Origin: Vicinamibacterales bacterium
Lineage (GTDB): Bacteria > Acidobacteriota > Vicinamibacteria > Vicinamibacterales > 2-12-FULL-66-21
NCBI GenBank assembly: GCA_035699745.1
Contig: DASSPH010000034.1
Location: 1 to 64,000, forward strand
Length of the DNA: 64,000 bases
Reading direction: 5' to 3'
Below are positions 5,583 through 14,764 of the stretch, in pieces; the stretch's first letter is position 1; the number at the start of each line of letters is the position of its first letter. The notes beneath the pieces are model-generated. The model saw only the letters and a program-made list of their open reading frames with translations. It had not been told where the DNA came from and ran no database searches. The position numbers and the translations under genes were made by a program.

Positions 5583-5927
5583 ATGCAAACCACTCTGACT
5601 CCTGCGAACGCACCCCTGGACCGCTGGCTGAACGACATCGGCTGGGGCCTGCTGCTGATGCTGACCGGCGCGGTCTGGCTGCTGCCAACGGAGGTCGTGC
5701 CGTCGGGCACGTGGCTCCTCGGCGTGGCCGTCATCCTGATCGGCATCAACGTCGTGAGATACGTCAAGCACATCGCCGTGAACGGCTTCTCGACGGCGAT
5801 CGGCGTCGCGGCGTTCGTGGCGGCGGTGAGCCAGTTGTGGCGCTCCGATCCGCCGCTGATCGCCATCTTCCTGCTCGTCATCGGCGCCAGCCTGGTGGCG
5901 AAGCCGTTCCTGACCAGGACCGCATGA
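5583..5927 (+). CDS. Small four-helix membrane protein
   Basis: The 114-residue protein begins at the ATG at 5583, with AAAGG upstream. It contains about four hydrophobic stretches (WGLLLMLTGAVWLLP, LLGVAVILIGINVV, AIGVAAFVAAVSQLW, LIAIFLLVIGASLVA), so it is an inner-membrane protein. Its stop overlaps the start of the C_GCAxxG protein by four bases (ATGA), which implies translational coupling and a shared role. No enzymatic motif was seen and I do not recognise the family. The 275 bases before it hold no gene. Confidence 0.7.
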   Translation: MQTTLTPANAPLDRWLNDIGWGLLLMLTGAVWLLPTEVVPSGTWLLGVAVILIGINVVRYVKHIAVNGFSTAIGVAAFVAAVSQLWRSDPPLIAIFLLVIGASLVAKPFLTRTA

Positions 5928-6967
5928 CGATCATTCCGCTCGTCGATGCCGCCGGGCCGGCGGCGCGTCTGCGCCGCCGCACTCTCGCGAACCTCGCGTG
6001 CATGGGACACTGCGCGCCGACGGTGATGCAGACGCTGTTGGACGCCTCCGGCGTCCAGGCCCCCTGGCTGGTCAAAGCGTCGGGGGGACTGCCGGGCGGC
6101 ATCGCGAACACCGGTGACGAGTGCGGCGGCGTCACCGCTCCGCTGATGCTGCTCGGACTGAGGCACGCGCACGATCCGCTCGATCGCGGCCTCCCCGTCG
6201 TTGTCTACAAGGGGCACGAGCTGCTGCGGCGGTTCGCCGCCAGTCACGGCACCGTCCTCTGCCGTGACATCCGCGGACGCGATCGGCTGCCACTGCGGTG
6301 CGTCGGCGTGATCCGTCACGCCCCTGAGACGTACGCGCAGAGCGCGTCGCAGGACGCGGCGTCCGTTCTTCCCGAGGACGCCCGGCGGGCATTTGCGCGC
6401 CTTCACGCGCACTTCGCCGAGCACGATTTTCACTGCGCTCGCGCAGTCACGGGCCTCGCCGACAGGTCGCTGGCGGACGCGCTGTCGGGGTTCGCCGGCG
6501 GCACGGTATTCTCCGGGGGCACCTGCGGCGCGCTGACCGCCGGCGTCGTGGCGTTGGGCGCTGCACGCGGCGCCATCGAACACAGCCGCCTTCGCGTCCT
6601 GCGCATGATCGGCGTGATGGCGATGGGCGGCGATGCGTTCGCGGACAAGTACAACGCATTCAACCGGACGATGAACCTCGGGCATCGCCTGGCGCGCTGG
6701 TTCACCGACGAATTCGGCAGTACGCAGTGCCGCGTGCTCACGCGGTGTGACTTTTCGACCGCTGCGGGAGTGACGAGGTACGTCGAATGCGGCACGGTGA
6801 ACAGGTGTCAGGGGCTTGCCCGACGGGTCGCGCTGAAGGTGCAGGCCTTGATCGAGCAGGACGCCGGACCGCCCTCGCTATCCAACGGAGTGATGATCGG
6901 GCCCGAATCCGAGATCCCGGCCCGTTCGGGAATGATGCCGGCGGCAGCGAGCGCGCGCGGCGGCTGA
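5924..6967 (+). CDS. Duplicated C_GCAxxG_C_C-type redox protein
   Basis: The 347-residue protein starts at the ATG overlapping the previous stop. It appears to hold two C_GCAxxG_C_C-like modules. The first has CMGHCAPTVMQTLL and ECGGVTAPLMLLG. The second has FHCARAVTGL, GGTCGALTAGVVALG and a cysteine-rich tail with three spaced cysteine pairs. Members of this family carry conserved cysteines and are thought to bind a cofactor or take part in electron transfer, but their roles are largely unproven. There is no signal peptide. It is coupled to a small membrane protein and convergent with the benzoyl-CoA operon six bases away, which makes a redox link possible but unproven. Confidence 0.7.
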   Translation: MTIIPLVDAAGPAARLRRRTLANLACMGHCAPTVMQTLLDASGVQAPWLVKASGGLPGGIANTGDECGGVTAPLMLLGLRHAHDPLDRGLPVVVYKGHELLRRFAASHGTVLCRDIRGRDRLPLRCVGVIRHAPETYAQSASQDAASVLPEDARRAFARLHAHFAEHDFHCARAVTGLADRSLADALSGFAGGTVFSGGTCGALTAGVVALGAARGAIEHSRLRVLRMIGVMAMGGDAFADKYNAFNRTMNLGHRLARWFTDEFGSTQCRVLTRCDFSTAAGVTRYVECGTVNRCQGLARRVALKVQALIEQDAGPPSLSNGVMIGPESEIPARSGMMPAAASARGG

Positions 6968-6972
6968 GGCGC

Positions 6973-7698
6973 TCAAGCCGTCTGCCCGCCGTCCACGACC
7001 AGGACCTGCCCGGTGATGAACGCGGCGAGATCGGAAGCGAGAAACACGATGGCCGACGCGATGTCGTCCGGCCGTGCCAGCCGTCCGAGCAGAATCTCGC
7101 GCCTCGCGCGCTCGACAATCTCCGGCGGCAGCGCTGCCGTCATGGGCGTTTCCGTGAAGCCCGGCGCCACCGCGTTGACCCGGACGCGGTCGCGCGCAAG
7201 GTCCGTGGCAACTGCGCGCGTGAAGGCGATGAGACCCCCCTTCGAGGCCGCATAGTTCGACTGGCCGAACTTTCCGCGAATGCCATTGATCGACGCCACG
7301 TTGACGATCGCGCCGCCGCGGCCCCGTGCGCGCATTCCCCGCGCCGCCGCCCGCACCATGCGGAACGCCCCGCTCAAGTTCACGTCGATGACATCGTCCC
7401 ATTCGCGATCGGCGAGTTTCCATACGACGCCGTCGCGGGTGATGCCGGCGGCGTTGACGAGGATGTCGGCACCGAGTTGTTCCCGATCCAGGCGGTCGAC
7501 GAGGGACTCGACCGCCGCGGCATCCCGCACGTCGAGAATACAGCTGCGTTCGACGGACGGGTCTGATGCGGGGTCGCGATCGAGCGCAACCACCCGCGCG
7601 CCGGCCGCGGCCAACTGCCGCGCGGTGGCGAGCCCGATGCCCGACGCCCCGCCGGTCACCCAGGCGATTCGTCCCGCGAGATCGACCGCGAGCGGCAC
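6973..7698 (-). CDS. Short-chain dehydrogenase (FabG-like), last gene of the benzoyl-CoA operon
   Basis: The 241-residue NAD(P)-dependent SDR has cofactor motif TGGASGIG (residues 15-22) and the tetrad N107, S136, Y149, K153 (SNYAASK). It ends with the usual VVDGGQTA. The start is a GTG sharing one base with the bcrD stop (TAGTG), so translation is coupled. Its place in the operon suggests an acyl-CoA substrate. The pathway needs an oxidation of 3-hydroxypimelyl-CoA after ring opening, and this enzyme is a fair candidate. A general 3-oxoacyl reductase is the alternative. SDR membership is certain; the substrate is inferred. Confidence 0.85.
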   Translation of the reverse strand: MPLAVDLAGRIAWVTGGASGIGLATARQLAAAGARVVALDRDPASDPSVERSCILDVRDAAAVESLVDRLDREQLGADILVNAAGITRDGVVWKLADREWDDVIDVNLSGAFRMVRAAARGMRARGRGGAIVNVASINGIRGKFGQSNYAASKGGLIAFTRAVATDLARDRVRVNAVAPGFTETPMTAALPPEIVERARREILLGRLARPDDIASAIVFLASDLAAFITGQVLVVDGGQTA

Positions 7699-8528
7699 TA
7701 TCCGCTCACCCGCGCGCTGTCCGCCAGCCGCTGTTCGGCGCGCGTGCTCAAGCGCCGCTGCCCGAGCACCGCCGCGCCGATGGCGCCGACGAACTGGACG
7801 TCGTCCGGCGGCGGAATGTTGACGGACGCGCCCAGGCGTTCGCGCATCAAGCGACCCATCGACCGGAAGCGCAGGATGCCGCCCGTCAGGGTGAACTCGG
7901 GCTGCATCTGCACGCGCTTCATCAACTGCACCGACCGGTCCACCAGCGACACGATCGCCCCCTGCATGATGTCGGACGGCGAGGTGCCCTGCGAGAGATG
8001 ATTGATCACCTCGGATTCGGCAAACACGGCGCAGACGCCCGAGATCGGCACGGCTTCGCGCGACATCTCGGCCAGCTGGCCGATCTGCTCCGTCGAGTAC
8101 CCCATGTAGCGGGCGGTCTTCTCGAGAAACGCGCCCGTCCCGGCCGCGCACTTGTCGTTCAGCCGGAACGACCGCACTTTGCACGCGTCGTCCAGGCGGC
8201 TGGCCTTCATCGTCTGGCCGCCGATGTCGAGCACGGTGCGCGTCCCCGGGAAGAACCAGGCGGCGCCGCGCGCGGCGGCGGTCAGGTCGGTCACCTGCAC
8301 GTCGCGAAACGGCACCAGGAAACGACCGAATCCAGTGGTGACGACATACTGCACCTGACCCTCGCCGACGCCCGCATCCGCGAGTGCTTCCTCGAAAATC
8401 CGTCTGGCGACCTCCGTCAGCCGGAAGCCGGAGCGGCCGATGGCCCGGCCGACGATCGCTCCGTCGCCGTCGAGGAGAACCCCCTTGGTGTACGTCGATC
8501 CGACGTCGATGCCCGCGGTGAGACTCAT
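7698..8528 (-). CDS. bcrD: Benzoyl-CoA reductase ATPase subunit D (BcrD/BzdQ-like)
   Basis: The 276-residue protein is an ASKHA-fold ATPase of the BcrA/BcrD/HgdC activase family. It shows the phosphate motif [11 protein letters not shown] and a second ATP motif [10 protein letters not shown]. It also has the two cysteine motifs ([10 protein letters not shown] and [11 protein letters not shown]) that place the [4Fe-4S] cluster at the dimer interface. It hydrolyses ATP to drive low-potential electrons into the BcrB/BcrC catalytic part. The ATG overlaps the bcrA stop by four bases, matching stoichiometric production. The paralogous bcrA lies directly upstream. Confidence 0.9.
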
Positions 8529-9343
8529 GGCCTCTCCTTCACCGGCCCTGCGGCGGACGCTGCCGCGGAGATTCGCTCCAGGGCGAAGAGCGCGGCGCCG
8601 AGCGCGCCCATGTAGGGGGAGTCGTCGCTGACATTCACCGGGTACCCGAGCGCCGTCTCGAGCGCCTTCACCATGCCGATGTTCCTGGTGACGCCGCCGG
8701 TGAAGGTCACTTCGCGTTCGATGCCGACGCGCCGCATCAACCCGAGCGAGCGCGACACGATCGACTGGTGGACGCCGAGCAGGATGTCCTCGATCTTCTT
8801 CCCCTTGGCCACCCACGACAGGACTTCCGACTCGGCAAACACGGTGCACGTGGTCGTGATCTTCACCGGCCGTTCGGCGCGCAGGGCCGTCGGTCCAAGC
8901 TCGTCGATCGGGATCTCGAGGGCGGCCGCCGCCGCACCGAGGAACCGTCCGGTCCCGGCCGCGCACTTGTCGTTCATGCAGAAGTCCGCGATCTCGCCGT
9001 TCGCCTTGACGCGGATCGCCTTGGTGTCCTGGCCGCCCATGTCGACCACCGTGCGCGTGCCCGGAAACAGGTAGACGGCGCCGCGCCCGTGACAGCTGAT
9101 CTCCGTGACCTGCGTGTCGCCGAAGGTGACCCGGTATCGCCCGTATCCGGTGCCGACGATGCAGCCGACTTCGCGTTCTTCCAGGCCGGCGTCGGCGAGG
9201 GCCTGCTCGTAGGCGTGCTCCGCGGCGCGGACGACGCTGGCACCCGTGTCGATGAGCGCACGCCCGACGAGACGCCCCCGCTCGCTGATGATGACGGCCT
9301 TGGTCTGCGTCGATCCGACGTCGACCCCCGCCGCGTACGCCAT
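8525..9343 (-). CDS. bcrA: Benzoyl-CoA reductase ATPase subunit A (BcrA/BzdP-like)
   Basis: The 272-residue activase-type ATPase has [13 protein letters not shown] at the N-terminus, [12 protein letters not shown] as the second ATP motif, and cluster cysteines in [12 protein letters not shown] and [11 protein letters not shown]. It is the likely partner of BcrD in the electron-activating module. It is short: in Thauera-type enzymes the A subunit is much larger (about 430-440 residues, as I recall), whereas Azoarcus Bzd-type enzymes have two short ATPase subunits. This one fits the latter. The start at 9343 is preceded by GAAAGGGGGA. It lies 14 bases after bcrB. Confidence 0.9.
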
Positions 9344-9357
9344 CTGATCCCCCTTTC

Positions 9358-10641
9358 CTACGCGGATGTCCTGGCGAGCTTGCGCGACGCAAGCCCTTCG
9401 AAGAACGCATCCACGCGGTTCTTCATCTGCGCCTCGGACACGACGCGCCGGTCCATCATGTCCGACTCGAGGAGCAGGCTCGGGATGTCGCGGCGCTCGC
9501 CGAGAACGCGCCGGGTATCCGACAGGCCCGTGGACGTCGTCCGGCAGCTCTTGATGCCGTGGAACACCACGCCGTCGACGCGATAGGGATCGATCAGGTC
9601 GATCAGCGCGCGATCCTGGAAGAACATGCAGTCCATCGCGTGCCTCACACCGATCAGCGCGCCTTCGGCGAGGCTCTCGATCGGACGCGAGAGGTCGTAC
9701 TGCCAGCCGAGCCCGGCGCCGCCGGACGCAAACCAGAGATACGTCGAGCTGACGAAGGCGCCGCCCCACTCGGAGAACAGCTCGTTGAAGCGGCGGAAGA
9801 TCGGGTAGCACGGCACGCCGACGAACACCAGCCGATGCTTCTCCTCGTTGATGGTGCCGAGCCCGTTCGCGGCCTTGTAAGACATCTCCTCGACCAGGTC
9901 GCGGAAGTACGCGGCGCCGGCGGCCGTGCCGCGAAAGCCGTTGGCCACGCCGAGGTAGACGGTACCCTCGGAAACCGCGTTGAAGACGGCCGGGGTGCTG
10001 CGATTCAACTCGATCAGCTGCTTGAACGAGCGCGACATCGCGTTGGCGTGTCCCATCGTCTCGCGCAGCCGATCGACGTCGAACTTCTTCTTCGCGACAC
10101 GCTCCAGCACGGCGATGAGCTCGCGTATCTGCCGTTCGACGTAGATCCGATCGCGCTCGAAGTCGGGATCGCCAGGCCATGTCTGACGCCCGGACGCGCG
10201 GGAGCCCGGGATGTCCACCGTGACGACCGGCGTCCCGTGCATGCGCTCCCAGATCTCTCCCCATTTCAAGTAGGTGTTGCACGCGTTCGTCAGGATGGCG
10301 ACATCCGGCTTCGGGATCACGCCCATGGGATGCCGCCCTTTGCGAAGCTGGAGGGCGACGTCGGCCTTGACGTAGCCGCAGATGTCCGGCGAGTAGCCGT
10401 AGTCTTCGGCCTCGTTGAGATACTCGTGAGCGACCCGGCGCACGGCCATCTGCAGCGAGTTGATCTCGGGGAACACCGGCGCCATGTCGAAGGCGAGAAG
10501 CAGCTCGTTGAAGCTGCCCATGACGAAGACGTACGCAGCGGGCCGGCCGCGCTGCGGCGCCTCGGTCAGCGACGCGAACCACTCCCGGAACATCCTGGCC
10601 CCTTCGGTGACTCCCCGTCCGACGATCGCGGGCGAATTCAT
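9358..10641 (-). CDS. bcrB: Benzoyl-CoA reductase catalytic subunit B (BcrB/BzdO-like)
   Basis: The 427-residue protein belongs to the 2-hydroxyacyl-CoA dehydratase/BcrB-BcrC superfamily. Visible marks are [20 protein letters not shown] near the start, [12 protein letters not shown] with a conserved cysteine, [15 protein letters not shown], and [12 protein letters not shown] near the end. With BcrC it forms the substrate-binding and iron-sulfur part that reduces benzoyl-CoA to cyclohexa-1,5-diene-1-carbonyl-CoA in the cytoplasm of anaerobes. It starts at the ATG at 10641, 25 bases after the bcrC stop. The length agrees with known BcrB/BzdO proteins. Confidence 0.9.
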
Positions 10642-10666
10642 GTGCGCTCCCGGACTGGCTGCATTC

Positions 10667-11830
10667 TCAAGTGAACAGCACGTTCTCGACGAAGGTCTCG
10701 AGCTGAATCTGGAAGTGATCGAAACTCGTCATCTTCTCTTCGAACTCGCCGACGAAATACGGGATGCCCGCGTCGTCGAGGGCGTGCACGTAGGCGACCT
10801 GCTCGTCGAGGCCCGGCTCGCACATCTTCGCCGCCGTGATGATCGCGGCGTCGGCGCGCGACGCGCGTATCCTCGCCAGCAGCATCTTCTCTTTCGGCTT
10901 TCGCAGGTCGTGCTGCACCGGGCTGTAGGTGGACCGTTCGAGGTATGCGGTCGCGAGGTTCAGCAGCGGGTCCCCGGACGCGTCCACGTCCTCCACGATC
11001 CAGCGGAGGCCGATGAGCAGATCGTCGTCCACGACGTAGCACGACTGGCCGATCGCGCGCAGCAGCTCGATGGGCGGCTGCTCGCAGAACCCGCCTTCGA
11101 ATACAACCCGGATCCGGTCCTGCGGCTTGACGACGCGCGCCGCGATCCGCGGCAGGACGCTCGCCAGCAGCGCGTTGTGCTCTTCGCGAGGGATCCTGCC
11201 GCCGACCGCCGTCAGCGCATAGGCGTCGTCGACGGGCAGCAACCACGGTGTCTCACGCCGGATCTCGTACAGCCGCCGCAGCAGTCGCCGGTTGTCATTG
11301 AACACGGCGATGGAGGCACGGAGGTCGTCGTCCCCTACCCGGCGTCCTGCCGTCTCTTCGATCAGTTCGAGGATCCGCGCGTACTCGTCGCGCAGGTAAC
11401 TCGCGGCGTAAGTCGAGTTGGCGTTCTGCGGCAGGTACAGGATCCGGCACGGGTACGGGACGCTGCGCTCCCAGATCGCCGCGAGGTTCCGGGCCACGTC
11501 GCAGATGGGATGGCTGACGAACAGGTCCAGCTCGAGCCGGTTCGAGAGCGCGAGCTCCAGCGAGCTCTTGACGATCGAGCAGAGATAGGAACCGAACCGC
11601 GCCTCCGCGTCGCGCCCCTCGACGGCCGCACCGTGCACCTTGACGGGCAGGAGCCCCGCCGCGTGGGCGAGTTCCTCGGGGAAGTACACCTGGAAGTGGC
11701 CGAGTACCTTGCCGCCTGCCTCGCGCCAGCGCGCGACGGTTGGAAAGTCCGGATCCTCCAGCACGTCCTTCGCCATCGCGATGACGTCGTCCACCGAACG
11801 CTCGCGCCAGTCGTCGAGTACGGCGGTCAT
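10667..11830 (-). CDS. bcrC: Benzoyl-CoA reductase catalytic subunit C (BcrC/BzdN-like)
   Basis: The 387-residue protein is a second 2-hydroxyacyl-CoA dehydratase-type subunit. It has LGHFQVYFPEELAHAAGLLP near the start, cysteines in GSYLCSIVKSSLE and SHPICDVARN, and a C-terminal AAKMCEPGLDEQ segment. In the class I enzyme such cysteines bind the [4Fe-4S] clusters that feed electrons to the ring, and BcrC pairs with BcrB. Its ATG overlaps the dch stop by four bases. The order C-B-A-D is that of characterised bcr operons (N-O-P-Q in bzd naming). Confidence 0.9.
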   Translation of the reverse strand: MTAVLDDWRERSVDDVIAMAKDVLEDPDFPTVARWREAGGKVLGHFQVYFPEELAHAAGLLPVKVHGAAVEGRDAEARFGSYLCSIVKSSLELALSNRLELDLFVSHPICDVARNLAAIWERSVPYPCRILYLPQNANSTYAASYLRDEYARILELIEETAGRRVGDDDLRASIAVFNDNRRLLRRLYEIRRETPWLLPVDDAYALTAVGGRIPREEHNALLASVLPRIAARVVKPQDRIRVVFEGGFCEQPPIELLRAIGQSCYVVDDDLLIGLRWIVEDVDASGDPLLNLATAYLERSTYSPVQHDLRKPKEKMLLARIRASRADAAIITAAKMCEPGLDEQVAYVHALDDAGIPYFVGEFEEKMTSFDHFQIQLETFVENVLFT

Positions 11831-12597
11831 GCGTCTTTCCAGTGCGGCTGCCGGCGCTCCATGAAGGCGGCGATGCCCTCGGAGGCGTCGTGCGTCCGCA
11901 TCAAGCGATCCAGGTACTGGGTCTCGAGACCGGCGAGAAGCTCAGGAAGCACGCGAAGCATGCCGGCCCGGCTCGCTTCGGCGGCGTGCGCGAGCGCGGC
12001 GGCGGACTTCGGCGCCAGTTGCTGCGCGAACCACCCGGCCGCTTCCGCGTCCAGGCGGTCTGACGGCGCCACGCGATCGACGAGTCCCGCCGCCTGCCAC
12101 CAGGCGGCCGAAAGCGATTCGCCGCCGAGCACCGCGCGCGCGGCCCGGGACGCGCCGACGCGCAGCGGCAGGAGCGCCGCGGCGGCCGGCGGGAACACTC
12201 CGAGCCCCACCTCCGGCACGCCGAGCACCGCGTCCTCGGAGGCAAACACCATGTCGCACGCGAGAACCAGCTCGAAGCCTCCGCCCAGACAGCGGCCCCG
12301 GACCACCGCGAGCGTTGGCGCCGGCGTCCGCAGCAGATCCAGCACCGCGCCGTTCAGCTCGGCCAGCACGCCCGCGATGCGTTCGGCGACGTGCTCTTCG
12401 ACGCTGGCGCCGTAGCTGAAATTCGGTCCGGCCGCCTCCAGCGTAACCAGCTTGATCCCCGTGCCGGGCGCCATGGACGCAAGCGCCGCGCGCAGTTCGC
12501 CGATCACGTCCATCGTGACGACATTGCCCTTCGGCCGATCGAGGATCAGACGAAGCAGAGCGCCGCCGTGCGCCGGCTCGACGCGGAGGCCGCTCAT
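11827..12597 (-). CDS. dch: Cyclohexa-1,5-diene-1-carbonyl-CoA hydratase
   Basis: The 256-residue crotonase-fold protein has the oxyanion-hole segments FSYGASVEEH and RGRCLGGGFELVLACDM, followed by EVGLGVFPPAAAALLP. It would add water to the diene made by benzoyl-CoA reductase to give 6-hydroxycyclohex-1-ene-1-carbonyl-CoA. The assignment as Dch rather than a generic enoyl-CoA hydratase rests on its place between oah and bcrC. The start and stop overlap both neighbours by four bases, so it sits inside a coupled operon. Confidence 0.87.
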   Translation of the reverse strand: MSGLRVEPAHGGALLRLILDRPKGNVVTMDVIGELRAALASMAPGTGIKLVTLEAAGPNFSYGASVEEHVAERIAGVLAELNGAVLDLLRTPAPTLAVVRGRCLGGGFELVLACDMVFASEDAVLGVPEVGLGVFPPAAAALLPLRVGASRAARAVLGGESLSAAWWQAAGLVDRVAPSDRLDAEAAGWFAQQLAPKSAAALAHAAEASRAGMLRVLPELLAGLETQYLDRLMRTHDASEGIAAFMERRQPHWKDA

Positions 12598-13700
12598 CGC
12601 GCTCGTCCTGCACCCGCGTGGACCGGGTGAATGGCGTTGAACAGCTCGTCATCCCACGTCGCGCCTTGCGCGAGCCGCCGCCGGAGCTCGATGAAATCGA
12701 CCTCGCGCCGGTCTTTCGGTCCCTCGTTGAACGCGCGGAATCCGGCCCTGGCCTCCGTCATCATGTTGAGCGCGAGCCAGGCGCGGTTGGTCTCGGCATT
12801 CCGCTGCCAGTGCTCGAGCTTTTTCTTCCGCACGCTCTCGATGGTCTTCGTCAGGCAGTCCGGCATCGTGTAGAGCAGCTTCGTCGCGAGCGCCTCGACG
12901 GCCGCGTCGAGCGGCGCCAGATCGATTTCCGATCGCAGCGTCAGTTGTTTTGCCGCCTCGAGCTCCTCGCCGGTCTTGAAGTCGCCGTACACCAGCGCGC
13001 CCGTGTCGTCGATCCAGCGATCGGTCACGACCCCGGGATTCGGAATGAACCGGCCGTCGCTCTTCAGCACCCGCACGACGCCGTTCAGCAGCCCGAGACG
13101 ATGAGCCTTGTACGCGGACCAGTGCTCGCAGAGCGTGCAGCTCTCCATCGCGTGAGCCATCCCCACGAACAGGTGCAGGAAGTCGGTGGATCCTCCGTCG
13201 GGTGCCGAGCCGTGGCGCGGGCCCGCCTGTCCGAAGCGCGCGAGGTCCGACGCGATCGAGAAATCGCAGGCCATGCCGATTTCCTGGCCGCCGCCGATTC
13301 TCAGCCCGTTGACGCGGTTGATCACCGGTTTGTCGCACGTCAGGATGCCGGTGACCATGTCGTTGAACAGCCGCATGTACTGGCGGTACTCCTGCGGACG
13401 GCCCGCGTAGTACTCGGCGTACTCGCGCGTGTTTCCGCCGGTGCAGAACGCGCGGTTGCCGGCGCCCGTGAACACCACCGCCACGACGCCGCGGTCCGTC
13501 GACGCTTCACGAAACGCCAGGATCACCTCCGCGACGGCGTCGGTGGTGTAGCTGTTCAGCTCTGCGGGGTTGTTCAGCGAGATCCACGCGTTGAACAGAT
13601 CCGGCACGGGACCGCCGTCGACGTCACGCACCGGGTGGCGTTCGTAAAGGATGTGGCGGTACTCGACCCGATCGACGAGGCGGTGCGATTTCAGCAGCAT
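12594..13700 (-). CDS. oah: 6-oxocyclohex-1-ene-1-carbonyl-CoA hydrolase (ring opening)
   Basis: The 368-residue protein is a long crotonase-superfamily member. It shows the pattern typical of Oah/BzdY: FNAWISLNNPAELNSYTT, AFCTGGNTREYAEYYAGRP, NRVNGLRIGGGQEIGMACDF, and a long C-terminal extension with an FNAIHPVHAG ending. Oah hydrates the double bond and cleaves the ring of 6-oxocyclohex-1-ene-1-carbonyl-CoA to form 3-hydroxypimelyl-CoA. The start at 13700 (MLLKSHRLVDR) lies 26 bases after had. This is one of the most diagnostic genes of the pathway. Confidence 0.92.
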   Translation of the reverse strand: MLLKSHRLVDRVEYRHILYERHPVRDVDGGPVPDLFNAWISLNNPAELNSYTTDAVAEVILAFREASTDRGVVAVVFTGAGNRAFCTGGNTREYAEYYAGRPQEYRQYMRLFNDMVTGILTCDKPVINRVNGLRIGGGQEIGMACDFSIASDLARFGQAGPRHGSAPDGGSTDFLHLFVGMAHAMESCTLCEHWSAYKAHRLGLLNGVVRVLKSDGRFIPNPGVVTDRWIDDTGALVYGDFKTGEELEAAKQLTLRSEIDLAPLDAAVEALATKLLYTMPDCLTKTIESVRKKKLEHWQRNAETNRAWLALNMMTEARAGFRAFNEGPKDRREVDFIELRRRLAQGATWDDELFNAIHPVHAGAGRAR

Positions 13701-13726
13701 GTGCCTGACTCCAGGTGTGCAGACGA

Positions 13727-14764
13727 TTACGGAACGAGCACGGGCCGCTTGCCGCGGTGCGGCTCGGCGAAGAGCGCCGGTCCATCTTTCAGTGCGTGCA
13801 GTTCGACGAAGGGCGCAACCTGCACCTGTCCGGACAGCACGAGGTCCGCGACGGCCGGGTAGTGCTGCGGCGCGCAGCCCCAGTTGCCGAACGCCGTGGC
13901 GTCGAGCGCCATCAGGTTCGACAGGCGAATCGATACCTTGTCCATCGTGAACCCGACGATTCCGAGCGTGCCGCCGGGAACCAACAGCGCCCAGGCGAGC
14001 TCCTGGCCGGCCGCGGTTCCGCTCATCTCGAGAATGCGCCACCGTGCGGTGCACACGCCGCTCTCGGCGAGCAGCGTTTTCTTGATGGCGCGTCCGTCCG
14101 TTTCGGCGGCGTTGAACGTCCAGCCGGCGCCGAGCGCCGAGGCGCGCGCCAGCTTCTCGCCGTCGACGTCGACCGCCGCGACGGCCGCGCCGCACGCCCG
14201 CGCGATCTGCACGCCGTACGTCCCGATCCCGCCGACGCCGATGACGACGACGAGGTCGCCGGTGTTCACGCACGCGCGCTGAATGGCCTGGTACGGAGTC
14301 GTCACCGCATCCGCGATGACGGATAACGACGCGAGCGAATGATCGCCAAGGTCATCGGGCAGCGGCACCAACCGGTTCGCCGGCACGACGACGTGCGTCG
14401 CGAACCCGCCGGGCATGTCGTTGCCCGGCATGAGCTGACGTTGACAGGCGAGCGGGCGCCCCGCCCGGCAGACGTCGCACGCGCCGCACGGCATCACCGC
14501 GGGAACGAGGACCTGGCGGCCGATCAGCTCCTTCGGCCCACCGGCGACGTCGTCGACGACGCCGGCGATCTCGTGTCCGAGCACGAGCGGCAGATCATGC
14601 TTGGTGCGGACGGCTCCCGAATAGAAGCCGATGTCGGTATGACAGAGGCCGCAGCCGGCGACGCGCACGCGGGCTTCCCCGGTCTCGAGCGGCGGCAGGG
14701 GCAGGTCGCGCAGTTCGAGCGTCCGCGGGCCCGTGAGGAAGAGACCGTACGAGGCCGAACTCAT
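13727..14764 (-). CDS. had: 6-hydroxycyclohex-1-ene-1-carbonyl-CoA dehydrogenase
   Basis: The 345-residue zinc-dependent MDR alcohol dehydrogenase has catalytic zinc ligands in GCGLCHTD (C41) and LGHEIAG (H64, E65). It has a four-cysteine structural zinc lobe (MPCGACDVCRAGRPLAC) and Rossmann motif GVGGIGTYG. It oxidises 6-hydroxycyclohex-1-ene-1-carbonyl-CoA with NAD+. The start at 14764 was chosen over an upstream ATG at 14821 because GGGAGG lies just before it and the N-terminus then matches the family. It is the first gene of the operon, so the promoter should lie in 14765-15057. Confidence 0.9.
   Translation of the reverse strand: MSSASYGLFLTGPRTLELRDLPLPPLETGEARVRVAGCGLCHTDIGFYSGAVRTKHDLPLVLGHEIAGVVDDVAGGPKELIGRQVLVPAVMPCGACDVCRAGRPLACQRQLMPGNDMPGGFATHVVVPANRLVPLPDDLGDHSLASLSVIADAVTTPYQAIQRACVNTGDLVVVIGVGGIGTYGVQIARACGAAVAAVDVDGEKLARASALGAGWTFNAAETDGRAIKKTLLAESGVCTARWRILEMSGTAAGQELAWALLVPGGTLGIVGFTMDKVSIRLSNLMALDATAFGNWGCAPQHYPAVADLVLSGQVQVAPFVELHALKDGPALFAEPHRGKRPVLVP

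What the first reader, a model, noticed from the sequence alone, without database searches (positions are those of the whole stretch)
6973..14764. Complete benzoyl-CoA ring-reduction and ring-opening operon in a probable acidobacterium
Had, Oah, Dch, all four class I benzoyl-CoA reductase subunits and an SDR lie in one minus-strand run with several four-base overlaps. ATP-dependent benzoyl-CoA reductases are best known from Proteobacteria. No benzoate-CoA ligase, ferredoxin or 2-oxoacid:ferredoxin oxidoreductase is in the window, so entry and electron supply must come from elsewhere.
Basis: partly seen in the sequence, partly recalled or inferred. Interest (0 to 1): 0.72.

Follow-up and report, generated by a model that had tools for sequence, protein, structure and literature searches.

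The report
Methylbenzoyl-type ring-reduction operon in acidobacterium
This acidobacterium carries one eight-gene operon that should use ATP to reduce and then open the benzene ring of a CoA-bound aromatic acid without oxygen, and its key enzyme belongs to a little-studied branch that also occurs in many uncultured bacteria of other phyla.

Summary
[quoted passage not shown] The genome is an acidobacterium: two same-order genomes are the named records NP133 and UBA2161. The reductase is neither the Thauera Bcr nor the Azoarcus Bzd type (their curated models stay below cut-off); all four subunits are closest to the solved 3-methylbenzoyl-CoA reductase (MBR; 53% identity for the catalytic subunit), with the catalytic cysteines kept. 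The 80 best of 377 scan hits span ten phylum-level groups. In Acidobacteriota a similar Had-Oah chassis also carries true Bcr-type reductases (8 of 9 tested non-MBR regions, one from the window's own family), and an AU test on Oah says the modules were re-paired at least once. Elsewhere in the genome are a KorA-type oxidoreductase, a ferredoxin, a cbb3 oxidase and a clade II N2O reductase, but no benzoate-CoA ligase over cut-off and no Nar/Nap. Substrate and entry step stay open. A 2026 paper already mentions bcrABCD, dch, had and oah in two Acidobacteriota MAGs.

The parts
13727..14764 (-). [quoted passage not shown]
   Evidence: NCBIfam TIGR03201 397.7 bits over cut-off 338.65; ADH_N and ADH_zinc_N
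12594..13700 (-). [quoted passage not shown]
   Evidence: NCBIfam TIGR03200 550.9 bits over cut-off 464.45; groups with Oah of four other MBR-linked acidobacterial operons, support 100/99
11827..12597 (-). Dch: cyclohexa-1,5-diene-1-carbonyl-CoA hydratase, 256 aa, divergent
   Evidence: best model TIGR03189, 212.4 bits, below its cut-off of 292.5; same place between oah and the reductase in L037, L052, L058, L059
10667..11830 (-). MbdN-like gamma subunit (BcrC homologue), electron-transfer FeS subunit, 387 aa
   Evidence: PDB 9g87 MbdN 508 bits against BzdN 90 and HadC-type 123; C84, C110, C249, C337 conserved in 79 of 79 MBR-like and 9 of 9 other rows
9358..10641 (-). MbdO-like beta subunit (BcrB homologue), catalytic subunit, 427 aa
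   Evidence: PDB 9g87 MbdO 503 bits against BzdO 76 and HadB-type 102; E59, C88, C121, C366 conserved in 85 of 85 MBR-like and 9 of 9 other rows
8525..9343 (-). MbdQ-like alpha subunit (BcrA homologue), ATPase, 272 aa, as short as MbdQ (269 aa) where the BcrA model has 432 positions
   Evidence: PDB 9gai MbdQ 415 bits; PF01869 225 bits; TIGR02259 206.8 of 578
7698..8528 (-). MbdP-like delta subunit (BcrD homologue), ATPase, 276 aa
   Evidence: PDB 9gai MbdP 289 bits against MbdQ 201; PF01869 179 bits
6973..7698 (-). SDR-family dehydrogenase, 241 aa; probable 3-hydroxypimeloyl-CoA dehydrogenase (inferred from place only)
   Evidence: FabG-like SDR, best TIGR01830 241 bits, below its cut-off of 297.75; downstream of MbdP also in L034, L035, L037, L058 at 58-65% identity

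Best explanation
One operon for anaerobic breakdown of an aromatic CoA thioester, most likely benzoyl-CoA. MbdQ and MbdP hydrolyse ATP to push single electrons from reduced ferredoxin through a shared [4Fe-4S] cluster to the FeS cluster of MbdN and on to the [4Fe-4S]-water site of MbdO, which adds two hydrogens to the ring (cyclohexa-1,5-diene-1-carbonyl-CoA). Dch adds water, Had oxidises the alcohol to the ketone, Oah adds water and cuts the ring to 3-hydroxypimeloyl-CoA, and the SDR probably oxidises that product for beta-oxidation. Shown here: gene content, order, taxon, MBR-type affiliation, conserved cysteines. Inferred from the solved homologues and the known pathway: the chemistry, the electron path, the substrate. 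The host is probably a facultative anaerobe: it encodes cbb3 and CtaD-type oxidases and a clade II N2O reductase, and a KorA-type 2-oxoacid:ferredoxin oxidoreductase that could reduce the ferredoxin.
For: Had and Oah pass curated cut-offs. All four reductase subunits have the solved MBR as best PDB match. The cluster ligands of BzdO (Cys95/128/380; PMC11971306, passages and Discussion read) align to C88/C121/C366, which never vary in 85 MBR-like rows. The same order recurs in L037 and L058 (Had-Oah-Dch-N-O-Q-P-SDR) and in L052, L059 without a detected SDR. Reductase and Oah also co-occur unlinked: 3 of 4 and 13 of 50 genomes have Oah over cut-off. Host: KorA-type TIGR03710 563.7 over 482.75, ferredoxin L227, NosZ TIGR04246 781.8 over 625, CcoNO 1225 over 1080. 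The operon is not foreign in composition: GC 0.682 against 0.683 for the rest, tetranucleotide r with the rest 0.817 against 0.805-0.846 for five other chunks.
Against: No benzoate-CoA ligase over cut-off in a genome rated 100% complete. Dch is below its cut-off. No Nar/Nap model over cut-off among the six PF00384 matches. In 37 of the 50 genomes no Oah reached cut-off, and 8 of 14 Acidobacteriota genomes with an MBR-type MbdO have no Oah at E<=1e-80 (three of the 8 are only 76-81% complete), so the reductase branch as a whole is not tied to canonical Oah. The sigma-70 scan found no promoter-like site. No expression or activity data.
Confidence: 0.8

Rival explanations
1. Same pathway, but the physiological substrate is a substituted benzoyl-CoA (methyl-, halo-, hydroxy- or methoxy-), as for the characterised MBR, with Dch, Had and Oah processing the substituted ring.
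For: All four reductase subunits are nearest to the 3-methylbenzoyl-CoA reductase; the divergent Dch fails the model for the unsubstituted substrate; no canonical benzoate-CoA ligase; other Acidobacteriota, one in the same family, use the true Bcr type with Had and Oah.
Against: Had and Oah pass the curated models for the unsubstituted intermediates. MBR is recalled to be substrate-tolerant, so affiliation does not fix the substrate. At 53-57% identity substrate range is not readable from sequence.
Confidence: 0.3
2. The 'reductase' is a 2-hydroxyacyl-CoA dehydratase or a double-cubane reductase and the operon serves a fermentation.
For: Same PF06050/PF01869 families; HadB/HadC-type models do match (123.4 and 140.9 bits).
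Against: HadB/HadC-type and double-cubane scores are far under their cut-offs and under the MBR match (503/508 against 102/123 bits); two different ATPase subunits, matching MbdQ and MbdP; linked Had and Oah.
Confidence: 0.02
3. The contig is a contaminant of the bin, from a proteobacterium or another phylum.
For: Bin contamination is estimated at 1.47%; relatives of MbdO lie in many phyla.
Against: Tetranucleotide make-up of the contig agrees with five other own contigs (r 0.86-0.91), though some other acidobacteria reach 0.84-0.87, so this speaks against another phylum more than against a relative. MbdO groups with seven Acidobacteriota rows (SH-aLRT 86, not starred) and Oah with four (100/99).
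Confidence: 0.03
4. The reductase branch has another main role in most of its hosts (for example aromatic-CoA salvage under microoxic conditions) and the window's clade is a special case that is coupled to Had-Oah-Dch.
For: Oah over cut-off is missing in 37 of 50 genomes, and Oah at E<=1e-80 in 8 of 14 Acidobacteriota MBR genomes; a small orphan protein accompanies MbdP in 61 of 72 loci but not in the window's clade.
Against: 26 of the 37 carry a lower-scoring Oah-like match, some perhaps divergent hydrolases and at least one, by its score over 141 positions (L156), perhaps a cut canonical Oah; bins are incomplete; the 50 were chosen after leaving out nine loci with linked Oah.
Confidence: 0.15

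Closest known systems
[quoted passage not shown] CIB
   Same: Four homologous subunits, each the best PDB match; short ATPase alpha subunit; conserved cysteines; reductase genes together with ring-opening genes
   Different: 53% (O) and 57% (N) identity only; gene order Had-Oah-Dch-N-O-Q-P instead of an operon that begins with mbdO (PMC4424350, passages read); no CoA ligase on the contig by TIGR02262, whereas the mbd cluster has MbdA and a transporter; transporter and regulator were not looked for systematically here
BCR type: BcrCBAD of Thauera / BadDEFG of Rhodopseudomonas (gene names recalled)
   Same: Class I, same pathway; in Acidobacteriota the order Had-Oah-Dch-C-B-A-D occurs with this type in L203, L204, L205 and L216, and without a detected Dch in L206, L215 and L218
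   Different: Window subunits fall below TIGR02259/02260/02261/02263 cut-offs, while acidobacterial Bcr-type B subunits score 631-716 over 486.55
BZD type: BzdNOPQ of Aromatoleum sp. CIB (PDB 8s02)
   Same: Three Cys ligands of the catalytic cluster of BzdO
   Different: BzdN/O/Q models not met; by eye on the alignment three of the six BzdN double-cubane cysteines (36, 263, 293) have no Cys partner in the window protein
Acidobacteriota MAGs of hadal sediment with bcrABCD, dch, had, oah (PMC13170169, passages read)
   Same: Same phylum and pathway by annotation
   Different: Named in one sentence of the passages seen; no reductase subtype, operon or phylogeny there

Membership tests
[quoted passage not shown]
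[quoted passage not shown]
   C88, C121, C366 align with them and are invariant in 85 of 85 MBR-like and 9 of 9 other rows; ligands from PMC11971306
[quoted passage not shown]
   E59 is invariant in 85 of 85 and 9 of 9 rows and lies near the expected place, but the BzdO alignment starts after it
[quoted passage not shown]
   needs protein
MBR type | All four subunits nearest to MbdO, MbdN, MbdQ, MbdP among solved proteins | tested here: met
MBR type | One clade with the characterised MBR, apart from BCR and BZD types | tested here: inconclusive
   9g87 and 86 MBR-like rows lie opposite 9 other acidobacterial rows (99, starred), but 9g87 is a long branch outside all 86, BZD is not in the tree, and the tree holds only the best 80 of 377 scan hits and one characterised MBR
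MBR type | Permanent heterotetramer; turnover of 3-methylbenzoyl-CoA | not testable with these tools
   needs protein
BCR type (Thauera) | Curated subunit models TIGR02259, 02260, 02261, 02263 over cut-off | tested here: not met
   best scores 206.8 of 578, 198.5 of 486.55, 146.4 of 312.85, 264 of 421.15
BZD type (Azoarcus) | Curated models TIGR03190, 03191, 03192 over cut-off | tested here: not met
   best scores 94.9 of 453.8, 83.2 of 448.6, 182 of 380.2
Benzoyl-CoA ring-opening set Had/Oah/Dch | Had (TIGR03201) and Oah (TIGR03200) over cut-off | tested here: met
Benzoyl-CoA ring-opening set Had/Oah/Dch | Dch (TIGR03189) over cut-off | tested here: not met
   212.4 of 292.5, best-scoring model all the same
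2-hydroxyacyl-CoA dehydratase | HadB/HadC-type models NF052455, NF052456 over cut-off | tested here: not met
   123.4 of 750 and 140.9 of 700

The most novel reading that the evidence does not exclude
The MbdO branch seen here is a separate, uncharacterised subclass of ATP-dependent aryl-CoA reductases, sister to MBR and spread over about ten mostly uncultured phyla, that travels as a four-gene cassette (N-O-Q-P) and is paired with different downstream modules: canonical Had-Oah-Dch in the window's clade, divergent Oah-like hydrolases or none elsewhere, usually with an orphan CxxC protein. In the window it lets an oxygen- and N2O-respiring acidobacterium dearomatise substituted, plant-derived aromatic acids when oxygen runs out.
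Probability: 0.3. Interest if true: 0.75.

Novelty: new member of a known kind. Interest (0 to 1): 0.48.

Why it matters
Ring reduction without oxygen is one of the most demanding reactions in biology, and the best-studied ATP-dependent enzymes come from denitrifying proteobacteria. If the MBR branch works as inferred, Acidobacteriota and members of about nine other phylum-level groups have this power, the curated Bcr and Bzd subunit models miss it (each is under its cut-off here), and the pathway is modular: ring-reducing and ring-opening parts have been exchanged between lineages.

Tried and rejected
Bcr type and Bzd type: rejected, every one of their curated subunit models is below cut-off. 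Dehydratase reading: rejected. Recent cassette swap in the window itself: not supported, because window Oah groups with Oah of four other MBR-linked acidobacterial operons; an exchange is supported instead for L209/L210, whose MBR-linked Oah lies among BCR-linked ones (AU p 3.5e-5 against one clade; the group was named after a first tree had been seen, and one row of that first tree, L211, contained a stop). Foreign island: not supported. Third PF01869 gene of the genome (C97, L003): by eye a sugar-kinase-like protein next to a NagB-like gene, not a reductase part. Best ligase candidate (C55, L114): fatty-acid ligase type, 252.5 of 375.25 bits on TIGR02262, and by eye in an unrelated neighbourhood. 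Plasmid search for proteobacterial MBR references: 15 records, all at 21-26% identity, no MBR. Orphan protein f3: no Pfam match at E<=0.01 for 2 members, no NCBIfam match at E<=1e-30 for 1 member, no PDB sequence match better than E 0.011, none in the window genome at E<=10 (without a positive control), model mean pLDDT 68.6, no PDB fold match at E<=0.001. Promoter and terminator scan: no more than chance.

Literature: ten searches, all in the held PMC library only. '3-methylbenzoyl-CoA reductase' and 'MBR-type' with 'benzoyl-CoA' gave 0 papers, although PMC11971306 does name MBR-types in other words; subscription papers on MBR are mostly not held, so absence there shows little.
Full report
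What is there. The minus-strand run 14764 to 6973 holds eight genes at the coordinates given, with three 4-base overlaps, one 1-base overlap and three gaps of 14-26 bases, so one transcription unit is likely. Had and Oah pass their curated models; Dch is best matched by the right model but below its cut-off; the four reductase subunits match the broad families and fail every Bcr and Bzd subunit model.

Which reductase. Against the solved proteins, each subunit has the 3-methylbenzoyl-CoA reductase as best match: MbdO 503 bits (BzdO 76, HadB-type 102), MbdN 508 (BzdN 90, HadC-type 123), MbdQ 415, MbdP 289. Identity to 9g87 is 52.9% for O and 57.3% for N. The three cysteines that hold the catalytic cluster in BzdO (95, 128, 380; PMC11971306, passages read) align with C88, C121 and C366, invariant in 85 of 85 MBR-like rows and 9 of 9 other acidobacterial rows. 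E59 is as invariant and is probably the counterpart of Glu65, but the printed BzdO alignment starts after it. In N, C84, C110, C249 and C337 are invariant in 79 of 79; C128 and C264 vary (70 and 67 of 79).

Whose genome. The window is bases 1-64000 of contig C34 (65,495 bases) of a 6.3 Mb genome, 100% complete, 1.47% contaminated. Its same-order genomes G041 and G253 have MbdO contigs of 31,061 and 28,027 bases, equal to PCAK01000015.1 'Acidobacteria bacterium NP133' and DCWN01000009.1 'Acidobacteria bacterium UBA2161'; G229 equals JADGOC010000135.1 (same order) and G383 PMSM01000014.1 (same phylum), also titled as acidobacterial. Contig and operon agree in composition with five other own contigs, though some other acidobacteria come close. 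No marker-gene tree was made. The order is probably Vicinamibacterales; that is recall, from no call.

How widespread. In 396 Acidobacteriota genomes, 95 have some match to MbdO at E<=0.001, but only 14 (one of them by a partial match) have one of at least 65% identity (the count of 14 is mine from its table). A scan of the genome-contig collection with the alignment of 13 such proteins gave 377 hits that encode a relative, of which only the best 80 (66-74%) were kept and seen: 78 fall in ten phylum-level groups (Chloroflexota 21, Planctomycetota 16, Gemmatimonadota 16, Acidobacteriota 13, Pseudomonadota 6, Actinomycetota 2, and one each of Eisenbacteria, Elusimicrobia, Rokubacteria and Tectomicrobia) and 2 are titled only 'uncultured bacterium'. 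In a tree of 96 rows the window lies with seven other Acidobacteriota (SH-aLRT 86, not starred) and 9g87 lies outside all 86 MBR-like rows on a long branch. Because 297 hits and all other characterised MBRs are missing from that tree, 'sister to MBR' is a lead, not a result.

Operon context in relatives. Had-Oah-Dch-N-O-Q-P-SDR recurs in L037 and L058, and without a detected SDR in L052 and L059; L034 and L035 have Had-N-O-Q-P-SDR with Oah on another contig. Nine of the 80 named loci have a linked Oah of at least 50% identity. Elsewhere, Oah over cut-off was found in 3 of 4 and 13 of 50 genomes; another 26 of the 50 have only a weaker Oah-like match and 11 none at E<=1e-40. Among the 14 Acidobacteriota genomes with MBR-type MbdO, 6 have an Oah at E<=1e-80 and 8 do not, three of which are 76-81% complete (my cross-count). 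So the reductase branch is broader than the canonical pathway.

Two reductases, similar chassis. Of 396 Acidobacteriota genomes 36 have Oah at E<=1e-80 and 33 of these 36 also have some MbdO-family match (my cross-count). I fetched one region each from 17 chosen genomes. Eight have Had and Oah near a reductase whose B subunit is 32-34% like the window's, one (L207) a similar arrangement with a B subunit of the same distance, five have MBR-type reductases (L209, L210, L212-L214) and three show none. Of the nine non-MBR B subunits eight are true Bcr type: L203-L205, L208, L215, L216, L218 at 631-709 bits, and L206 through its own hit L030 at 716, cut-off 486.55; L207 fails with 320. L203 is from the window's own family. 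In one search, 3 of 10 distant acidobacterial B subunits pass that model and 7 (299-364 bits) do not. In the Oah tree the window groups with the four other MBR-linked acidobacterial Oahs of its kind (100/99), whereas the MBR-linked L209 and L210 lie among BCR-linked ones; one clade for all seven is rejected (p-AU 3.5e-5; 2.2e-6 with two Gemmatimonadota added). Ring-reducing and ring-opening modules were therefore re-paired at least once, but not demonstrably in the window.

Rest of the genome. Ligase: 19 matched stretches, none over the TIGR02262 cut-off; the best three proteins are a fatty-acid-type and two acetate-CoA ligases. Electrons: a KorA-type protein over cut-off (563.7 of 482.75) that by eye follows sdh and sucCD genes, a PFOR-length frame on C30, and a short two-cluster ferredoxin frame L227 (38 bits, PF12838 cut-off 27). 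Acceptors: four COX1-family genes over cut-off, two CtaD over cut-off, one CtaD-like read only in part, one fused CcoNO; clade II NosZ 781.8 of 625; six PF00384 matches, two of them NuoG-like, none over a Nar or Nap cut-off. Nitrite and nitric-oxide reductases, hydrogenases and the aerobic box pathway were not searched. A facultative host fits the view that class I enzymes need a good ATP yield (PMC11971306, Discussion read), but that is an inference, and class I genes are also reported in presumed strict anaerobes (PMC6472368, PMC5736913).

What is known. Class I enzymes in uncultured Chloroflexi, Aminicenantes, Krumholzibacteriota and archaea are in print (PMC5736913, PMC6472368, PMC10936416; passages read). 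PMC13170169 (2026) says in one sentence that two Acidobacteriota MAGs carry bcrABCD, dch, had and oah, so the bare finding is not new. I found no paper on MBR-type reductases in Acidobacteriota in the ten searches named under Tried and rejected; that library lacks most subscription journals.

Verdict. Real operon, confident pathway, corrected subtype, open substrate and entry step. As a single operon it is a new member of a known kind; the surprising part is the breadth and modularity of the MBR-like branch.

Noticed in passing
L067 12921-13193 and 60 further loci; not in the window: A small orphan protein (about 90-110 aa; GWxRR, CxxC and YTR motifs) lies within 1.8 kb of MbdP in 61 of 72 testable MBR-like loci; the 11 without it include all six testable loci of the window's clade (L034, L035, L037, L052, L058, L059), and the window's genome has none. 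No family or fold match.
   Followed up: partly
L207 6664-13740 (G257): Had-Oah-Dch beside a reductase of a third type: B subunit 320 bits on TIGR02260 (cut-off 486.55), 36% like the window's MbdO.
   Followed up: partly
L039, L050, L067, L075 (Planctomycetota): MBR-like cluster preceded by a FadB-like gene, a thiolase, an 1100-aa AMP-ligase fusion and a second HgdB/HgdC-like pair (families tested on L067 and L068 only); a possible different downstream pathway.
   Followed up: no
L067 and L068 (JASMMN010000024.1): Two identical MBR-like clusters in opposite orientation on one 63-kb contig; a real inverted duplication or an assembly artefact.
   Followed up: no
window 5924-6967 +: C_GCAxxG_C_C putative redox protein (PF09719, 105 bits) convergent with the SDR, 5 bases apart.
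   Followed up: no
G000:C69:214013-215287 (L129): Formate-dehydrogenase-like gene with one in-frame TGA, a possible selenocysteine codon.
   Followed up: no
G000:C72:14478-16316 (L255): Clade II (Sec-dependent) nitrous-oxide reductase, 781.8 bits over cut-off 625.
   Followed up: partly
L041 5463-6545, L163 1501-2412: Oah-like hydrolases of about 200-212 bits on TIGR03200 (cut-off 464.45) in genomes with MBR-like clusters, linked in L041: possible separate Oah subfamilies.
   Followed up: partly
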